Below, piece by piece: positions 2,821 to 38,903 of a stretch of 64,000 nt of DNA (the first letter of the stretch is position 1; each line of letters opens with the position of its first letter). Origin of the DNA: a virus. The DNA lies in the IMG/VR virus record IMGVR_UViG_3300041411_000080, positions 62,001-126,000 of that record; one strand, 5' to 3'. The notes under the pieces were generated by a model that saw only the letters and a program-made list of their open reading frames with translations, was not told the DNA's origin and did not search any database. The translations under genes were made by a program, and so were the position numbers.

Positions 2821-2973
2821 GCTCTTAAAGATCTTTCAATAATGAGTATTACTGCGTAATAGCTTTTAAATAAACTTTTGGAATTAATCTCCCCTCCTAT
2901 AGACTACCGTATCAGAGTACTTGTCTACTCATTTTATGAATCTTTAATCATACCCCACTAAAGGGAACATCTA

Positions 2974-5103
2974 ATGATCGACTCATTTAGATCGCTTTTC
3001 GGTAATGTTACCGTAAAGGAGACTAACGCTGAGATTGTCGTATCTGGTATCAGAGCCAAAGACATTATCCGAGATATGGATAAGCATTGGAAGACGACTA
3101 GAGTCTCACAGAACATCTTCAACACAGTAAGTGGTGGTTCCTTTAGCTTTGACAAGTTCTTTGCTCCAGAGATCATGTACATTCTGGAGAACATCAAATA
3201 CTACCGTAACCGTTGGACCAGTATTAAAGCTATCAATGCCATCATTGAGGCGATGATGGAACACACGTGGTTACGCAATACCAAACCCGTAGATAAAGTT
3301 ACAACTCCAGGACGACTAGACTTCCGTAAACTGAATAACCTTAAGTTTACAGCTAAACCGTACCAGATGGAGTACTTTGAGAACTATAGTTACCGATTGG
3401 ATCAATACGATCTTAGAGGTGACTTGATGGCAGCCGCAGCAGGCTCTGGGAAGACCTACATGGGTGCTGCATTGGCCGAGATGCTCAATGCTGACCTCGT
3501 CATAGTCTTCTGTCCTAAAGTGGTCCTAGAGTCCGTATGGGTCGACTCCATCAAAGAGATGTTTAAGACACCTCAGACGATCTGGCATTCCGGCACCCCG
3601 ATGGAATACACGGGTCAACGTTGGGTGCTGTGTCACTACGACGCCATGCAGAAGCTGAACGACATCTTCGAAAACCCTAAGCTGTATGAAGGGAAGAAGA
3701 TCGTTACGATTCTAGATGAATCGCACAACATGAACGATCCTAACTCAGCACGTAGTTTGCAATACCAAGCGATGGTTAAGAAGTTCGGGTCACGTGATAA
3801 CATCCAAGGTTCTGGTACACCAGTTAAAGCACTGGGTGCTGAGATCATTACCCTGTTGCGTGTAGTAGATCCATTGTTTACCCCACGAGTAGAAGCAGCC
3901 TTTAAGAAGATGTATGGTAAGGAAGCTTCGAAAGGGTTGGACATCATTCGTCACCGCTTAGGACTGGTTTCGTATAAGGTCGAGAAAGGTGAGATTGACT
4001 CGGAACTACTCCCACCAATTATGCGGGCTTATCCAATCCGTATTCCCGATGGGGAGAAGTTTACATTGCCTGCTATCCGTAAGGTAATGGAAGCCTTCAT
4101 CCGTGAACGAGCTGAGTACTACAAGAATCGTAGACCTGAGGATCTTAAGTTCTGGGACCAATGTGTTAAGAATGCACGTTCTCAATTAAAGAGCAAGCAA
4201 GCTGTAGTAGAGTTCGATGAGTATCTGTATAAGGTACACTTGATCTCTCGTACACCTGACCCTAGATTCTTAGGTGAGGAGATGAAAGCTGCTAACGCTT
4301 TTGAGAAACACGTCTTCGAGAAACTGTTGCCCCGTGATTGGGTACCTCGTTTCCGTGATGTTAAGTCAGTAGTCAAATACGTTAACCTTAAGATCCAAGG
4401 TGAAGTACTGGGTCGAGTGGTAGGCGGCATGCGGATTGAAGCTAACGTAGCTATGATCCCACATATCGACTGGGTAGGGATTGTTGAATCCACTCAGAAG
4501 AAGACCATCATGTTTACCAGCTTTATCGAGGCGGTAGACGCCGCTGAGGCACATACGACTCGTCTGGGTATGAAGCCATTGGTTGTCTACGGAAAGACCT
4601 CTAACGACCTTCCAAACATGGTCAAGCGGTTTGAAGCTGATGATGCACTGAACCCGCTGTTGGCTACTTACGCTTCGCTGTCCACTGGTGTACGACTCAC
4701 CATGGCAGACACGATGATTCTGTTGAACTCTCCTTTCCGAGCTTACATTCTGGAACAGGCGATTTCCCGTATCTATCGTCTTGGTCAAGACTCTCAGACT
4801 TACGTTTACCAGTGTGTTCTCGACACAGGTGAGATCCCTAACATCTCCACACGTTCTGCTGACATCTTGGCTTGGTCTACTGAACAAGTAGAAGCTATCA
4901 TGGGCATCAAGGCACCAATGATCCAAGGCGATACATTTGAAGTAGCTGCTGTGGAATCTATGCAGCACGGCGACTTTGATGACAACCGACTGATGTATAA
5001 ATGTTTGTCTGCTGCATTCGAGCAATACGACATCGAGATCGACTTTAATCAATTCACGTATAAACCAGAAGTTAAACCTATGCTTCCAGCGTGGATGCGT
5101 TAA
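2974..5103 (+). CDS. SNF2-type DNA helicase/translocase
   Basis: 709 residues with the superfamily 2 motif set. Walker A is A-G-S-G-K-T near residues 155-161, motif II is D-E-S-H near 247-250, motif III is G-S-G-T-P near 280, and motif VI is Q-A-I-S-R-I-Y-R-L-G-Q near 595-605. The Q-x3-R-x-x-R-x-G-Q form is typical of SNF2/Rad54-like proteins. An N-terminal region of about 130 residues precedes the helicase core. It should hydrolyse ATP to move along or remodel DNA in phage replication, recombination or transcription. The start has AAAGGGA upstream. It heads a rightward group with two virion-type genes and is divergent from the gene at 2381-2788. Confidence 0.9.
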   Translation: MIDSFRSLFGNVTVKETNAEIVVSGIRAKDIIRDMDKHWKTTRVSQNIFNTVSGGSFSFDKFFAPEIMYILENIKYYRNRWTSIKAINAIIEAMMEHTWLRNTKPVDKVTTPGRLDFRKLNNLKFTAKPYQMEYFENYSYRLDQYDLRGDLMAAAAGSGKTYMGAALAEMLNADLVIVFCPKVVLESVWVDSIKEMFKTPQTIWHSGTPMEYTGQRWVLCHYDAMQKLNDIFENPKLYEGKKIVTILDESHNMNDPNSARSLQYQAMVKKFGSRDNIQGSGTPVKALGAEIITLLRVVDPLFTPRVEAAFKKMYGKEASKGLDIIRHRLGLVSYKVEKGEIDSELLPPIMRAYPIRIPDGEKFTLPAIRKVMEAFIRERAEYYKNRRPEDLKFWDQCVKNARSQLKSKQAVVEFDEYLYKVHLISRTPDPRFLGEEMKAANAFEKHVFEKLLPRDWVPRFRDVKSVVKYVNLKIQGEVLGRVVGGMRIEANVAMIPHIDWVGIVESTQKKTIMFTSFIEAVDAAEAHTTRLGMKPLVVYGKTSNDLPNMVKRFEADDALNPLLATYASLSTGVRLTMADTMILLNSPFRAYILEQAISRIYRLGQDSQTYVYQCVLDTGEIPNISTRSADILAWSTEQVEAIMGIKAPMIQGDTFEVAAVESMQHGDFDDNRLMYKCLSAAFEQYDIEIDFNQFTYKPEVKPMLPAWMR

Positions 5104-35811: not shown

Positions 35812-37803
35812 ATGTACCAATCCGAAACTATGGACGCTGTCCGTGACGCAGCCCAGACGTTGACTCGGGAAGGTAAAGTACTGACCATGGGGAACCCTGA
35901 GTTCCCTTTGGCTGTATTCGCCGACACCTACAAAGTTGACGCAGAGCCGACCAACACTGCGCTCCCTGATGAAGAGATCGTAGCTGTTGAAGAACACTTC
36001 GATGAGATCAACCAAGACACCACTCCGGCTGAAGATGATTCCCGTGAAGGTATTGTTGCTAACTTGGGCCAAGCTGTAGCCAAGGTTCAGTTCAACACTA
36101 CCAACGTGATTATCCCTGCTATTAAAGCAATGCATCAAGCTTACGCTAGTATGCAAGCTGCTTCTTGCCAACCTGAGTACTCGGTTAAGGCTTGGCGTTA
36201 TCTGGCTCCTCACAACAGCGCTACGCTGGTTAACCACATCAACACTCGGTACACTACCGTTCGTCCGAAAGACTCTTATAAGTCGTTCGCTCTGGAAGGC
36301 CAGTCTGCTGAAGCCATTATCGAAATGATGGCGGTCAACAACCCACACCTCGAACAAGAGGAAGTAACTGAGTGGGCTCTGGAAGTTGGTAGTGCTCGTG
36401 TTGAAGCTGTGTGGAACTCGCTGTTTACCACTGGCCATGTAATGCCGGGTGGTCTGCCTTACCTTTCAGCTCAATCTGCACCGTTTAACGTTGACGACAT
36501 TCTGGTTGCTTATCTGATTTGCGGCCACTACATCGACAACCCAGTTGTGGTTCCTAACATCTCCGTTGATCTGGAAGAGTGGGAACACACCATGAAACTG
36601 TTGCACGAAATGTTCGGCTTCTATCTGATGCGCGCTTACGTGCGTCGTGCTGACATGCGTGAACAGGGTGTGATGATCCTGAAGAACGAGGCTACCAACC
36701 CAATCGCTACCCGTAAAGCAGTTGTTACTGTTAACGGTGACGTGTTCGATCCATGGGTTGTAGGTGGTGGTGACATTCAAGCTATTCTGGGCGCTGCTGT
36801 TGAGAACACTGGCGTCACTGACGTTAAGTATCTGGACGCCGCTGCACACAAGTTCATTGAACGCTGGCATGAAGTTTACCCACTGATTCAACAAGCGGCT
36901 ATCGACTATTCTGATCGTCAGCGGATGAACAACGTTATTACTACCTTCCGTGAAATCGGTCGTAGTGAACTGTTGAAAGACCGTTACACTCCAGAAACTG
37001 AAACTGCTCTGATTGATGCACTCCGTTACGTACGTCGTGACGATTACGAGAATCCATACAAGGTCTTCTCGAATCTGATCTGCCGTGTTTACTTCCCTGA
37101 ATCGACTTACCTCGAATATCTGGATGCTATCGATCAACATGGTCAAACCTTTACCAAGGCTTCTGTTCGTGAACTGGCTACCCAAGCGATGATCTCGCTG
37201 GTTGCTATCTTCCAAGCGAAGCAGATCAAGGTTGAAGGGTTTATCCCTGAGATTGATCCAGAAGGTTCGGCTGGTGGTCCTATTGATGACTCCGGTCTCT
37301 TGGCGATTACTGATGATGAAGCTCCTGAAGAAACCGCTGATGGCATTGAAGGTGAAATCGGTGACACTGGCGAAGTGGGTGATACCGGCGTGGTTGATGA
37401 TCTCACTGGCGATGATGCTGGCATGGACGATCTTGCTGGCGGCACTGACGGTGGTCTGGACGATGCAGCTGATAGCTTGGGTGGTGATGACACTGCTCTC
37501 GATACCGATCTCGGTGGGACTGATACTGAAGCGGCTGTAGGTGAAGCTACTGATGTAGAAGAAGACTTCTCTGCTGAACCAGAGGAAGAAGATCCATACG
37601 CTGAACTGGAAACCGGTGAAGCTGATGACGTGGAAGAAGAGTCGGAAGAAGTTGAATCTGAGGAAACTACAGAAGAGACCGAAGAAGAATCTGAGTCCGC
37701 TGAGGTAGAAGAAGAATCCGAAGAGACTACTGAGGAAACTGACGTCGAAGAGACTGAAGAATCCGAGGAAGAAACTGAAGAAGACGACACCCCTTTAGCG
37801 TAA
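35812..37803 (+). CDS. virion-type protein with long acidic tail; zero-frame product of a likely -1 frameshift gene
   Basis: 663 residues in the zero frame. Residues 1-475 are a helical globular region with no known domain. From about residue 480 to the end the chain is almost only Asp, Glu, Gly, Thr, Ser and Val, a disordered acidic tail of some 180 residues. The zero frame ends with P-L-A-stop. Two codons earlier the heptamer C-CCT-TTA is in register for -1 slippage and a hairpin follows, so part of the ribosomes should continue into the frame ending at 38903 (see those entries). AGGAG precedes the ATG. Its place between beta and the prohead protease matches phiKZ gp177, a virion protein as I remember it. 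Confidence 0.85.
   Translation: MYQSETMDAVRDAAQTLTREGKVLTMGNPEFPLAVFADTYKVDAEPTNTALPDEEIVAVEEHFDEINQDTTPAEDDSREGIVANLGQAVAKVQFNTTNVIIPAIKAMHQAYASMQAASCQPEYSVKAWRYLAPHNSATLVNHINTRYTTVRPKDSYKSFALEGQSAEAIIEMMAVNNPHLEQEEVTEWALEVGSARVEAVWNSLFTTGHVMPGGLPYLSAQSAPFNVDDILVAYLICGHYIDNPVVVPNISVDLEEWEHTMKLLHEMFGFYLMRAYVRRADMREQGVMILKNEATNPIATRKAVVTVNGDVFDPWVVGGGDIQAILGAAVENTGVTDVKYLDAAAHKFIERWHEVYPLIQQAAIDYSDRQRMNNVITTFREIGRSELLKDRYTPETETALIDALRYVRRDDYENPYKVFSNLICRVYFPESTYLEYLDAIDQHGQTFTKASVRELATQAMISLVAIFQAKQIKVEGFIPEIDPEGSAGGPIDDSGLLAITDDEAPEETADGIEGEIGDTGEVGDTGVVDDLTGDDAGMDDLAGGTDGGLDDAADSLGGDDTALDTDLGGTDTEAAVGEATDVEEDFSAEPEEEDPYAELETGEADDVEEESEEVESEETTEETEEESESAEVEEESEETTEETDVEETEESEEETEEDDTPLA
37791..37797 (+). 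promoter_or_regulatory. putative -1 ribosomal frameshift site CCCTTTA
   Basis: The sequence C-CCT-TTA is a perfect X-XXY-YYZ heptamer, with CCT (Pro) and TTA (Leu) as zero-frame codons 661 and 662 of the gene at 35812-37803. Re-pairing on CCC and TTT moves the ribosome back one base. It then enters a frame open to 38903 instead of meeting the TAA two codons later. Confidence 0.7.
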
Positions 37804-38903
37804 GCCAGCCTTCAAAAGAAGCTTGGAGTCCTGAGGAAATTAAGCGCCGTCTCGCTAGGCTAGATGCCCGGCGAAGCGGTCGCCCTTATCCCGCTTGGAC
37901 CGAAAGCCAGGGCGCTGGCAAAGAATACACTGAAGGTCCTGAGAGTAAGTTCACGCACCAAGGTTCCGTCTACAGTGTAGATGAACTGCTGAAGCTTACG
38001 AAGGGTTTACCAACGATTGATCTTCCAATCAAGAAGTTGCTGTGGATGCTTGACGGGGTTACCCAATTTGACGATGAACGCATCAGTAAGGTAGACCTGA
38101 GCTATCCAGTGATCGTTCAACAGCTTTCTCGTGGCTTAGGTCGATACGTAACCTTAGATGGTTTCCATCGTGTGGTACGTGCTGCTAGCGAAGGTCACAC
38201 GACTATTAAAGCGATCGTAGTAGACGATGCATTAATCGCCAAGCTTACACACCAGACACTCAGTACTGAAGGGTTCATTACTATCGATGAAGCGCGTGAG
38301 CGTGCACAAAGAGAATGTGATGCTGAAGGTATTGATCCTACTCTAAGTAATGCTGAACGTTGCACTCGTTTGATTGACATTCAACAGGGTTCTCCTTTGA
38401 TGCAAGAAGAACGTGAACGTAAGGCAGCTTACGCCGAGAGTCCTAACTGGAATCGTTTTAAAGCACATTCCATGCGAGTGATTAAAGAACTACCGCCTTC
38501 GATCGCAGAACGTCAAGCAGCTGATAAGTTCCATCGGGATCTTAAAGCTAAACTAGGTCAAACCAATGGAGTTCCAGCTATGGAAAAGTTTAACTCTAAG
38601 AATCTCTTCTCTATGTCGATAAGTAACGAGGCTGTAGCTCGTGATCCATTATGGCAACAACTCTTAGATGCTGATTGCTATTCTACATCGATTGCAGTAG
38701 CTGTACGGGAACATCCTGTTGAAGGTAAGGTTCTTGCTGATCTGTATACGAAGTTGAACGACCTTAGTAAAGGTGATGGCAAACGTGAATCAGCTTACGA
38801 TGCTTACTGTAATACTTGGTACGGCAAAGATGAAGACGATAAACTGAAGCTCATCAAAGACACGACCAAAGCTTTGAAAGCTCTTGAGAAAACATTTAAA
38901 TAA
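37797..38903 (+). CDS. -1 frame extension with ParB/sulfiredoxin-like domain
   Basis: 368 residues read from the frameshift site. The frame is open from 37779 but has no ATG, GTG or TTG before 38037 (TTG). The 80 codons between read as normal protein (W-S-P-E-E-I-K-R-R-L-A-R-L; V-Y-S-V-D-E-L-L-K-L) and supply the first strand of a ParB/Srx-like domain, whose core is R-Y-V-T-L-D-G-F-H-R-V-V-R-A. Starting at 38037 would cut this domain. ParB/Srx folds include DNA-binding, nuclease and CTP- or ATP-using enzymes; which applies is unclear. A helical region of about 220 residues follows. The expected fusion with the upstream gene has about 1030 residues. An alternative is a non-standard start codon or a sequencing indel. 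Confidence 0.75.
   Translation, partial: SVSQPSKEAWSPEEIKRRLARLDARRSGRPYPAWTESQGAGKEYTEGPESKFTHQGSVYSVDELLKLTKGLPTIDLPIKKLLWMLDGVTQFDDERISKVDLSYPVIVQQLSRGLGRYVTLDGFHRVVRAASEGHTTIKAIVVDDALIAKLTHQTLSTEGFITIDEARERAQRECDAEGIDPTLSNAERCTRLIDIQQGSPLMQEERERKAAYAESPNWNRFKAHSMRVIKELPPSIAERQAADKFHRDLKAKLGQTNGVPAMEKFNSKNLFSMSISNEAVARDPLWQQLLDADCYSTSIAVAVREHPVEGKVLADLYTKLNDLSKGDGKRESAYDAYCNTWYGKDEDDKLKLIKDTTKALKALEKTFK
37805..37826 (+). promoter_or_regulatory. hairpin downstream of the frameshift site
   Basis: CCAGCCTTC and GAAGCTTGG pair around an AAAA loop with a single C-C mismatch and one G-U pair. It begins 7 bases after the slippery heptamer, within the 5-9 base spacing usual for stimulatory structures. 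It has no U-tail and lies inside the open -1 frame, so it is not a terminator. Confidence 0.6.

What the first reader, a model, noticed from the sequence alone, without database searches (positions are those of the whole stretch)
37779..38903. Probable programmed -1 frameshift that adds a ParB/sulfiredoxin-like domain to a virion protein
The zero frame of the acidic-tailed gene ends at 37803. Two codons before its stop lies C-CCT-TTA (37791-37797), in correct register for -1 slippage, followed after 7 bases by a hairpin (37805-37826). The -1 frame is open from 37779 to 38903 and has no ATG, GTG or TTG until 38037. The 80 codons from the site to 38037 read as normal protein and supply the start of the domain whose core is T-L-D-G-F-H-R-V-V-R-A. 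Three independent features (heptamer, hairpin, missing start) agree. The expected product has about 1030 residues beside the 663-residue form. I know of no description of frameshifting at this locus in phiKZ-like phages.
Basis: partly seen in the sequence, partly recalled or inferred. Interest (0 to 1): 0.92.

Follow-up and report, generated by a model that had tools for sequence, protein, structure and literature searches.

The report
Frameshift tacks cargo onto injected protein
Giant Pseudomonas phages of the phiKZ kind appear to make some copies of a protein that they inject into the host with an extra tail, by having the ribosome slip back one base just before the stop codon; the slip site is conserved across many related phages and recurs, in another form, on a second internal head protein, which looks like a way to load extra proteins into the virus head.

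Summary
The zero-frame gene is the homologue of phiKZ gp177, a head protein injected into the host. In 11 of 11 distinct phages whose -1 frame continues past the stop, an in-register X_XXY_YYZ heptamer lies exactly one codon before that stop: CCCTTTA/G in seven, GGGAAAG in four. Eleven relatives without an extension have none. Codons between the stop and the first possible start evolve as protein in the -1 frame. In two phages the shift must fall within 13 nt around the heptamer.

The downstream hairpin is not supported: it is no more stable than shuffles and is not conserved. The ParB/sulfiredoxin-like domain is real by fold prediction, but it is an insertion into an older extension; one relative adds an acetyltransferase-like domain.

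New here: the same ParB-like domain follows internal head proteins in other phages, again in the -1 frame, at A_AAG-type shift sites.

Junctions carry the S-x-E motif of the prohead protease. I propose that frameshifting attaches low-copy cargo to a packaged, injected carrier, and that the protease may release it, as in retroviral Gag-Pol. The frameshift is near-certain by inference; cargo function and cleavage are untested.

The parts
35812..37803 (+). Carrier gene, zero frame, 663 aa: homologue of phiKZ gp177 / 201phi2-1 gp271 / SPN3US gp243
   Evidence: phrog_3841 E 1e-128; 70% identical to 201phi2-1 gp271 over residues 1-509; gp271 noted as similar to phiKZ gp177 and identified by MS
35983..35991 (+). 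AVE (residues 58-60), the propeptide cleavage site equivalent to 201phi2-1 AVE-61 / phiKZ SVE-60
   Evidence: cleavage sites from PMC5694885; AlphaFold2 model of low confidence (mostly <50) over residues 1-76 and ordered from about 78
37290..37788 (+). Acidic (Asp/Glu-rich), variable C-terminal tail leading to the shift site; approximate limits
   Evidence: sequence; tblastn matches to relatives end near residue 483-509
37791..37797 (+). Slippery heptamer C_CCT_TTA, in register, one codon before the stop
   Evidence: CCCTTTA/G in 7 of 7 clade-I phages, GGGAAAG at the same place in 4 clade-II phages
37801..37803 (+). Zero-frame stop TAA
37805..37826 (+).
   Evidence: z = -0.39 against shuffles; not formed in Phabio, PhiPA3 or L007
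37797..38903 (+). -1-frame extension (368 codons after the slip, then stop)
37797..37904 (+). N-terminal module of the extension, SxSQPSxEAWxPEEIxRRLARLxxRR...
   Evidence: conserved in 201phi2-1, Viktualia, Phabio, PhiPA3, L007, L008
37812..37820 (+). S-K-E at the junction; S-x-E invariant in 7/7 clade-I phages; matches the prohead protease motif (S/A/G)-X-E
   Evidence: motif from PMC10449902 and PMC5694885
37935..38246 (+). ParB/sulfiredoxin-like domain, an insertion within the extension
   Evidence: AlphaFold2 block means of pLDDT 81-97 over extension residues about 51-150; Foldseek: Noc 7ol9 E 2.1e-4, ParB 7bnk E 1e-3, sulfiredoxin 6ky4 E 2.3e-3; phrog_17560 E 1e-24
38037..38039 (+). First possible start codon (TTG) in the -1 frame; a start here would remove the first strands (residues 53-79) of the ParB-like fold
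38259..38270 (+). L-S-T-E after the ParB-like domain (possible protease site; V-S-K-E in L008)
   Evidence: inference
38277..38558 (+). Core module of the extension (CDAEGIDPTLSNAERCTRLIDIQQGSPLMQEERxRKAAY...), shared with 201phi2-1 gp270 and PHABIO_260
38622..38900 (+). C-terminal helical module, preceded by S-N-E; homologous to the whole extension of the Psa21 clade and to Viktualia CDS0481

Best explanation
A -1 programmed ribosomal frameshift at C_CCU_UUA, one codon before the stop of the phiKZ-gp177-type gene, makes a minority form of this injected head protein with a 368-residue C-terminal extension (ParB/sulfiredoxin-like domain plus helical modules). Inferred: the N-terminal propeptide and core carry the fusion into the prohead with the internal-head proteins. 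This puts a set, low number of cargo copies into the head and on into the host cell. Inferred and less certain: the prohead protease cuts at the S-x-E just after the junction and frees the cargo, a Gag-Pol-like arrangement. Supported by sequence evidence: the shift site, the coding -1 frame, the carrier's identity. Not shown: frameshift efficiency, presence of the long form in virions, the cleavage, and the biochemical role of the cargo. My separate confidences: frameshift real 0.95; extension acts as packaged cargo 0.65; released by the protease 0.45.
For: 11 of 11 distinct phages with a -1 extension have an in-register X_XXY_YYZ exactly one codon before the stop, of two unrelated kinds; 0 of 11 without an extension do. 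Parsimony steps between stop and first start fall on codon positions 1/2/3 of the -1 frame as 16/8/31 (clade I, p = 4e-4), 4/6/10 (clade II, p = 0.09) and 8/9/32 (internal-head-protein locus, p = 5e-6), with no -1-frame stops. In Viktualia and L007 the shift must occur within 13 nt holding the heptamer. TTA is 4 of 165 Leu codons in this gene and its large neighbour, yet is used here. The frame change occurs in five sequenced isolates (201phi2-1, Viktualia, Phabio, PhiPA3, Psa21), so it is not a sequencing error. The same ParB-like domain follows internal head proteins (PF12699 in D6, RVTF4, L042, L044, L046, L047) in the -1 frame at G_GGA_AAG, C_CCA_AAG or N_NNA_AAG; G_GGA_AAG, C_CCA_AAG, A_AAA_AAG and A_AAG are known to be shift-prone in E. 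coli (PMC5009743). Carrier: C-terminally 3xFLAG-tagged phiKZ gp177 is packaged and injected (PMC10449902); without SPN3US gp243 the ejection proteins gp53/54 are missing from heads (PMC5694885). Junction S-x-E: 7/7 clade I, 8/8 internal-head-protein locus, and just before the slip in clade II; 201phi2-1 gp238 is cut at STE-64.
Against: No direct evidence of the fusion. In the 201phi2-1 record gp271 and gp269 carry mass-spectrometry notes and gp270 (the extension) does not, so the long form is rare, removed, or not in virions. No stimulatory RNA structure is conserved. S-x-E is a loose motif and is not enriched overall in the extensions. Many relatives, phiKZ-type phages included, lack the extension, so it is dispensable in general. 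Five of the eight junctions at the internal-head-protein locus have only A_AAG with poor P-site re-pairing, and in Psa21 and L048 the upstream ORF there is short; L048's has no PF12699 match.
Confidence: 0.75

Rival explanations
1. The -1 ORF is a separate downstream gene started at a non-standard or distant codon, by coupling to the upstream stop or by its own ribosome binding site.
For: Annotators placed genes at the ATG about 92 nt after the stop in 201phi2-1, Viktualia and Phabio; Viktualia has GAGGAAACT before that ATG; one AUU at 37839 in the window has SD-like bases upstream.
Against: No start is conserved: the clade-I ATG and TTG are missing in the window and L008, and the AUU is CTA, CTT or ATA in most relatives. 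-1-frame coding constraint runs back towards the heptamer. Heptamer presence tracks the extension perfectly and switches type. Starting at TTG 38037 would cut the ParB-like fold.
Confidence: 0.04
2. A real frameshift, but the extension has a structural or regulatory job on the carrier itself (for example tuning inner-body assembly), rather than being cargo that is delivered or released.
For: A carrier homologue is needed to build the ejection-protein mass; the shortest extensions (about 90-120 aa) match no enzyme family; in T7 and T3 frameshifting extends the coat protein (PMC5009743).
Against: Extension content is variable and modular, with ParB/sulfiredoxin-like and GNAT-like domains in some phages only; the same ParB-like module sits on a second carrier; conserved S-x-E at the junctions.
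Confidence: 0.3
3. The frame change is produced by RNA polymerase slippage rather than ribosomal slippage.
For: These phages use their own multisubunit RNA polymerases, whose slippage behaviour was not examined here.
Against: Sites are CCCCTTTR, CGGGAAAG, CCCCAAAG and so on: short runs of 3-4 bases whose common feature is tandem or A-site tRNA re-pairing.
Confidence: 0.02
4. Decayed remnant or sequencing error: a formerly in-frame fusion broken by an indel.
For: Frame changes at gene ends can arise by indel.
Against: The same frame change in 11 phages with purifying selection downstream.
Confidence: 0.01

Closest known systems
T7 gene 10A/10B and T3, A118/A500/PSA, Lactobacillus A2 capsid or tail extensions by frameshifting
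   Same: A frameshift near the end of a virion-protein gene makes a minority C-terminally extended form (PMC5009743)
   Different: Those carriers are shell or tail proteins; here the carrier is an ejected head protein, the extension is modular, and there is a candidate protease site at the junction
Lambda G / G-T tail chaperone frameshift
   Same: Same kind of -1 heptamer; clade II and D6 use G_GGA_AAG, the lambda heptamer (that identity from my own knowledge)
   Different: Lambda G and G-T are assembly chaperones absent from the virion
Retroviral Gag-Pol (and totivirus capsid-polymerase) fusions
   Same: A -1 frameshift attaches low-copy cargo to a packaged protein; CCCUUUA has been proposed as the Giardiavirus slip site, though that paper's own sequences dispute it (PMC8230311)
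   Different: No homology; protease cleavage of the phage fusion is inferred only; the protease is a separate gene product (phiKZ gp175 type)
T4 capsid-targeting sequence, Alt and internal proteins; phiKZ inner-body proteins
   Same: Propeptide-directed packaging and protease maturation of proteins destined for ejection (PMC5694885)
   Different: No frameshift reported there
phiKZ gp177 / 201phi2-1 gp271 / SPN3US gp243
   Same: Homologous carrier
   Different: phiKZ-type members end without extension or heptamer

Membership tests
-1 programmed ribosomal frameshift site | In-register X_XXY_YYZ (or Z_ZZN) within the overlap of the two frames | tested here: met
   C_CCT_TTA 37791-37797
-1 programmed ribosomal frameshift site | Conservation of the site with a downstream -1 frame under coding selection | tested here: met
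   11/11 against 0/11 phages; codon-position bias
-1 programmed ribosomal frameshift site | Stimulator: 3' structure or upstream Shine-Dalgarno-like element (usual, not required) | tested here: inconclusive
   Hairpin z = -0.39 and not conserved; GAGG-like bases upstream in 5/7 clade-I sites but not in the window or L008, and expected in a Glu-rich tail
-1 programmed ribosomal frameshift site | Measured frameshifting or a junction peptide | not testable with these tools
   needs a reporter, ribosome profiling or mass spectrometry
phiKZ gp177 (phrog_3841) head/ejection protein | Homology over the whole core | tested here: met
   E 1e-128; alignments A3, A8
phiKZ gp177 (phrog_3841) head/ejection protein | N-terminal propeptide with (S/A)-V-E near residue 60 | tested here: met
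   AVE ends at residue 60
ParB / sulfiredoxin-like fold | Predicted fold and D-G-x-H-R type motif | tested here: met
   DGFHRVVRA at extension residues 123-131
ParB / sulfiredoxin-like fold | Nucleotide binding, CTPase or kinase activity | not testable with these tools
   no assay; Pfam gives no match, NCBIfam ParB only E 0.07
Gag-Pol-like strategy | Protease cleavage at the fusion junction and cargo in particles | tested here: inconclusive
   invariant S-x-E at the junction, but a loose motif and no cleavage data

The most novel reading that the evidence does not exclude
Nucleus-forming jumbo phages use a Gag-Pol-like system. A -1 frameshift at the ends of genes for at least two ejected head proteins fuses swappable cargo domains (ParB/sulfiredoxin-like, acetyltransferase-like, helical modules) to the carriers at low ratio. 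The prohead protease cuts at S-x-E junctions, and the freed cargo is injected with the genome to act on the host.
Probability: 0.4. Interest if true: 0.92.

Novelty: new variant of a known kind. Interest (0 to 1): 0.8.

Why it matters
How giant phages decide which proteins, and how many copies, go into the head and are injected at the start of infection is open. A frameshift that fuses variable domains to an injected carrier would be a simple answer, and it is directly testable in cultured phages (201phi2-1, PhiPA3, Phabio). It also shows that annotators have cut these fusions into unexplained 'hypothetical' genes (201phi2-1 gp270, PHABIO_260, Viktualia CDS0482, PSA21_241, PSA21_219) missing their true N-termini.

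Tried and rejected
Hairpin as stimulator: folded in all relatives with shuffles; no excess stability and not conserved in clade I. Clade II has a more stable hairpin (z about -1.3 to -2.6) but roughly 30 nt downstream, beyond the usual spacing. Sequence search of solved structures with the carrier: no hit; with the ParB alignment: only short Pizza-protein matches and SbnI at E 0.19. Fold search of the carrier: no solved structure; only uncharacterised jumbo-phage proteins, mostly about 450-510 aa. Bacterial genome contigs: no relative. Literature: no description of frameshifting in phiKZ-like phages found; the key 201phi2-1 and phiKZ proteomics papers are not held. Overall enrichment of S-x-E in the extensions: not found, so only the junction positions are argued. 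Transcriptional slippage and sequencing error were rejected as explained under rivals.
Full report
WHAT WAS CHECKED. The gene at 35812-37803 (663 aa) ends ACC CCT TTA GCG TAA; C_CCT_TTA (37791-37797) is in register; the -1 frame is open 37779-38903 without ATG, GTG or TTG before 38037. Of 115 ORFs of 100 aa or more in the window, this is the only one with both a heptamer in the last 10 codons and 60 or more open -1 codons beyond the stop. CCCTTTRNNNTAA occurs once in the 320,858-base virus record.

THE CARRIER. The gene is homologous to 201phi2-1 gp271, PhiPA3 gp208 and phiKZ gp177 (phrog_3841 E 1e-128). It lies just after the virion RNA polymerase beta subunit gene and before homologues of phiKZ gp176 and the prohead protease gp175. 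From papers: phiKZ gp177 interacts with inner-body proteins and, tagged with 3xFLAG at its C-terminus, is packaged and injected (PMC10449902). 201phi2-1 gp271 and phiKZ gp177 are cut by the prohead protease at AVE-61 and SVE-60. The SPN3US homologue gp243 is essential, and without it the abundant ejection proteins gp53/54 are missing from heads (PMC5694885). The window protein has AVE ending at residue 60, and its model is of low confidence before about residue 77. The fold resembles only other jumbo-phage proteins.

COMPARATIVE TEST OF THE FRAMESHIFT. I collected gp177-type loci from annotated phages and IMG/VR. Eleven distinct phages have a -1 frame that stays open well past the stop: this one, L008, L007, 201phi2-1, Viktualia, Phabio, PhiPA3, Psa21, L033, L034 and L035. 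All eleven have a canonical heptamer exactly one codon before the stop, CCCTTTA/G in the first seven (clade I) and GGGAAAG in the last four (clade II). Eleven phages lack an extension (KTN4, PA7, PA1C, Noxifer, RVTF4, D6, L030, L036-L039) and none has a heptamer in the last 20 codons. Replacement of one slippery sequence by an unrelated one at the same position points to selection for slipping rather than for the sequence. These phages are related (L037 and L038 are alike at this place, KTN4 and PA7 too), so these are not independent events; two heptamer types are the minimum.

CODING EVIDENCE BEFORE ANY START CODON. Between the zero-frame stop and the first possible start, parsimony changes fall on -1-frame codon positions 1/2/3 as 16/8/31 in clade I (p = 4e-4), 4/6/10 in clade II (p = 0.09) and 8/9/32 at the internal-head-protein locus (p = 5e-6). 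There are no stops in that frame, against 2-3 and 11-17 in the others. The conserved residues P-F-x-[LV]-[SN]-Q-x-S-x-E begin at the slip itself. In Viktualia and L007 the shift can only occur within 13 nt (TACCCCTTTAGCT and AACCCCTTTGACC). Starts used by annotators (ATG 92 nt after the stop) are absent from this window and L008.

HAIRPIN. It can form, but it is no more stable than shuffled sequence (z = -0.39) and fails in Phabio, PhiPA3 and L007. I do not count it as evidence. GAGG-like bases shortly upstream in five of seven clade-I phages could act as a Shine-Dalgarno-like stimulator, but they are expected in a Glu-rich tail.

WHAT THE EXTENSION IS. AlphaFold2 (16 sequences) gives high confidence over about residues 51-150 of the extension, and Foldseek finds ParB/Noc/KorB, sulfiredoxin and SbnI-type folds. 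A start at TTG 38037 would remove its first strands. Alignment shows that the ParB-like domain is an insertion into an older extension of about 110-120 residues. L008 has the ParB-like domain and a GNAT-like C-terminus (Pfam E 3e-4, just under the curated cut-off). The C-terminal module of the window protein is the whole extension in the Psa21 clade and a separate ORF overlapping by ATGA in Viktualia.

A SECOND SITE. The same ParB-like domain occurs in D6, RVTF4, Psa21 and IMG/VR phages L042, L044, L046, L047 and L048, directly after another ORF and again in the -1 frame, with conserved -1-frame residues before the first ATG. In D6, RVTF4, L042, L044, L046 and L047 the upstream ORF is a PF12699 internal head protein. 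The junctions are G_GGA_AAG, C_CCA_AAG, A_AAA_AAG or N_NNA_AAG right before the stop. The first three, and A_AAG alone, are reported as shift-prone in E. coli (PMC5009743). Several phages (Psa21 and the L033-L035 contigs) carry both sites. The two carriers are linked: the gp177 family is needed for packaging PF12699 proteins in SPN3US.

HOW IT MAY WORK. Near-certain by inference: -1 slippage makes a minority long form. Inferred: the long form is packaged through the carrier's propeptide and core, and its tail is delivered. Inferred, weaker: the prohead protease ((S/A/G)-X-E; 201phi2-1 gp238 is cut at STE-64) cuts at the junction, where S-x-E is invariant in 7/7 clade-I and 8/8 internal-head-protein fusions and lies just before the slip in clade II. 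L050, where the ParB-like gene has its own ATG, lacks the motif. The motif is loose and not enriched overall. Against: the 201phi2-1 record carries mass-spectrometry notes for gp271 and gp269, not gp270.

PLACE AMONG KNOWN SYSTEMS. Frameshift-extended virion proteins are known (T7 10B, T3, A118), and so is the lambda G-T chaperone (PMC5009743). An ejected-protein carrier with modular cargo and a candidate protease junction is, as far as the library searched shows, undescribed; most subscription papers were not searchable. I class it as a new variant of a known kind.

Noticed in passing
L011 4040-4381 (phage D6), L013 3974-4324 (RVTF4), L012 3992-4336 (Psa21), L042/L044/L046/L047/L048 near 3974-4336: Second set of probable -1 frameshift junctions that attach the ParB-like domain to internal head proteins; annotated as separate hypothetical genes.
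   Followed up: partly
L008 7964-8230: C-terminus of this relative's extension is a GNAT-like acetyltransferase domain (Pfam E 3e-4, sub-threshold), suggesting swappable cargo.
   Followed up: partly
G000:C1:317008-317280 (-), locus L010 1486-1827: Stand-alone ParB/sulfiredoxin-like gene (113 aa, own ATG) in the same phage genome, 32% identical to the frameshifted domain.
   Followed up: partly
L016 3590-4339 (phage PA5oct): A ParB-like domain inside a 249-aa protein annotated as structural by mass spectrometry, outside the phiKZ group.
   Followed up: no
L002 7279-7602 (Viktualia), L004 7102-7788 (PhiPA3): The ORF after the extension overlaps its stop as ATGA; in the window the Viktualia-type module is instead fused in frame to the extension.
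   Followed up: partly
L012 2903-4001 (Psa21 genes 217/218): Where D6 has one internal-head-type ORF, Psa21 has two shorter overlapping ORFs (2903-3466 and 3459-4001); possibly another frame change, or divergence.
   Followed up: no
window 37143-37790 (-): Long open frame on the minus strand opposite the acidic tail (Ser-rich), almost certainly a by-product of the GAA/GAG-rich sequence.
   Followed up: no
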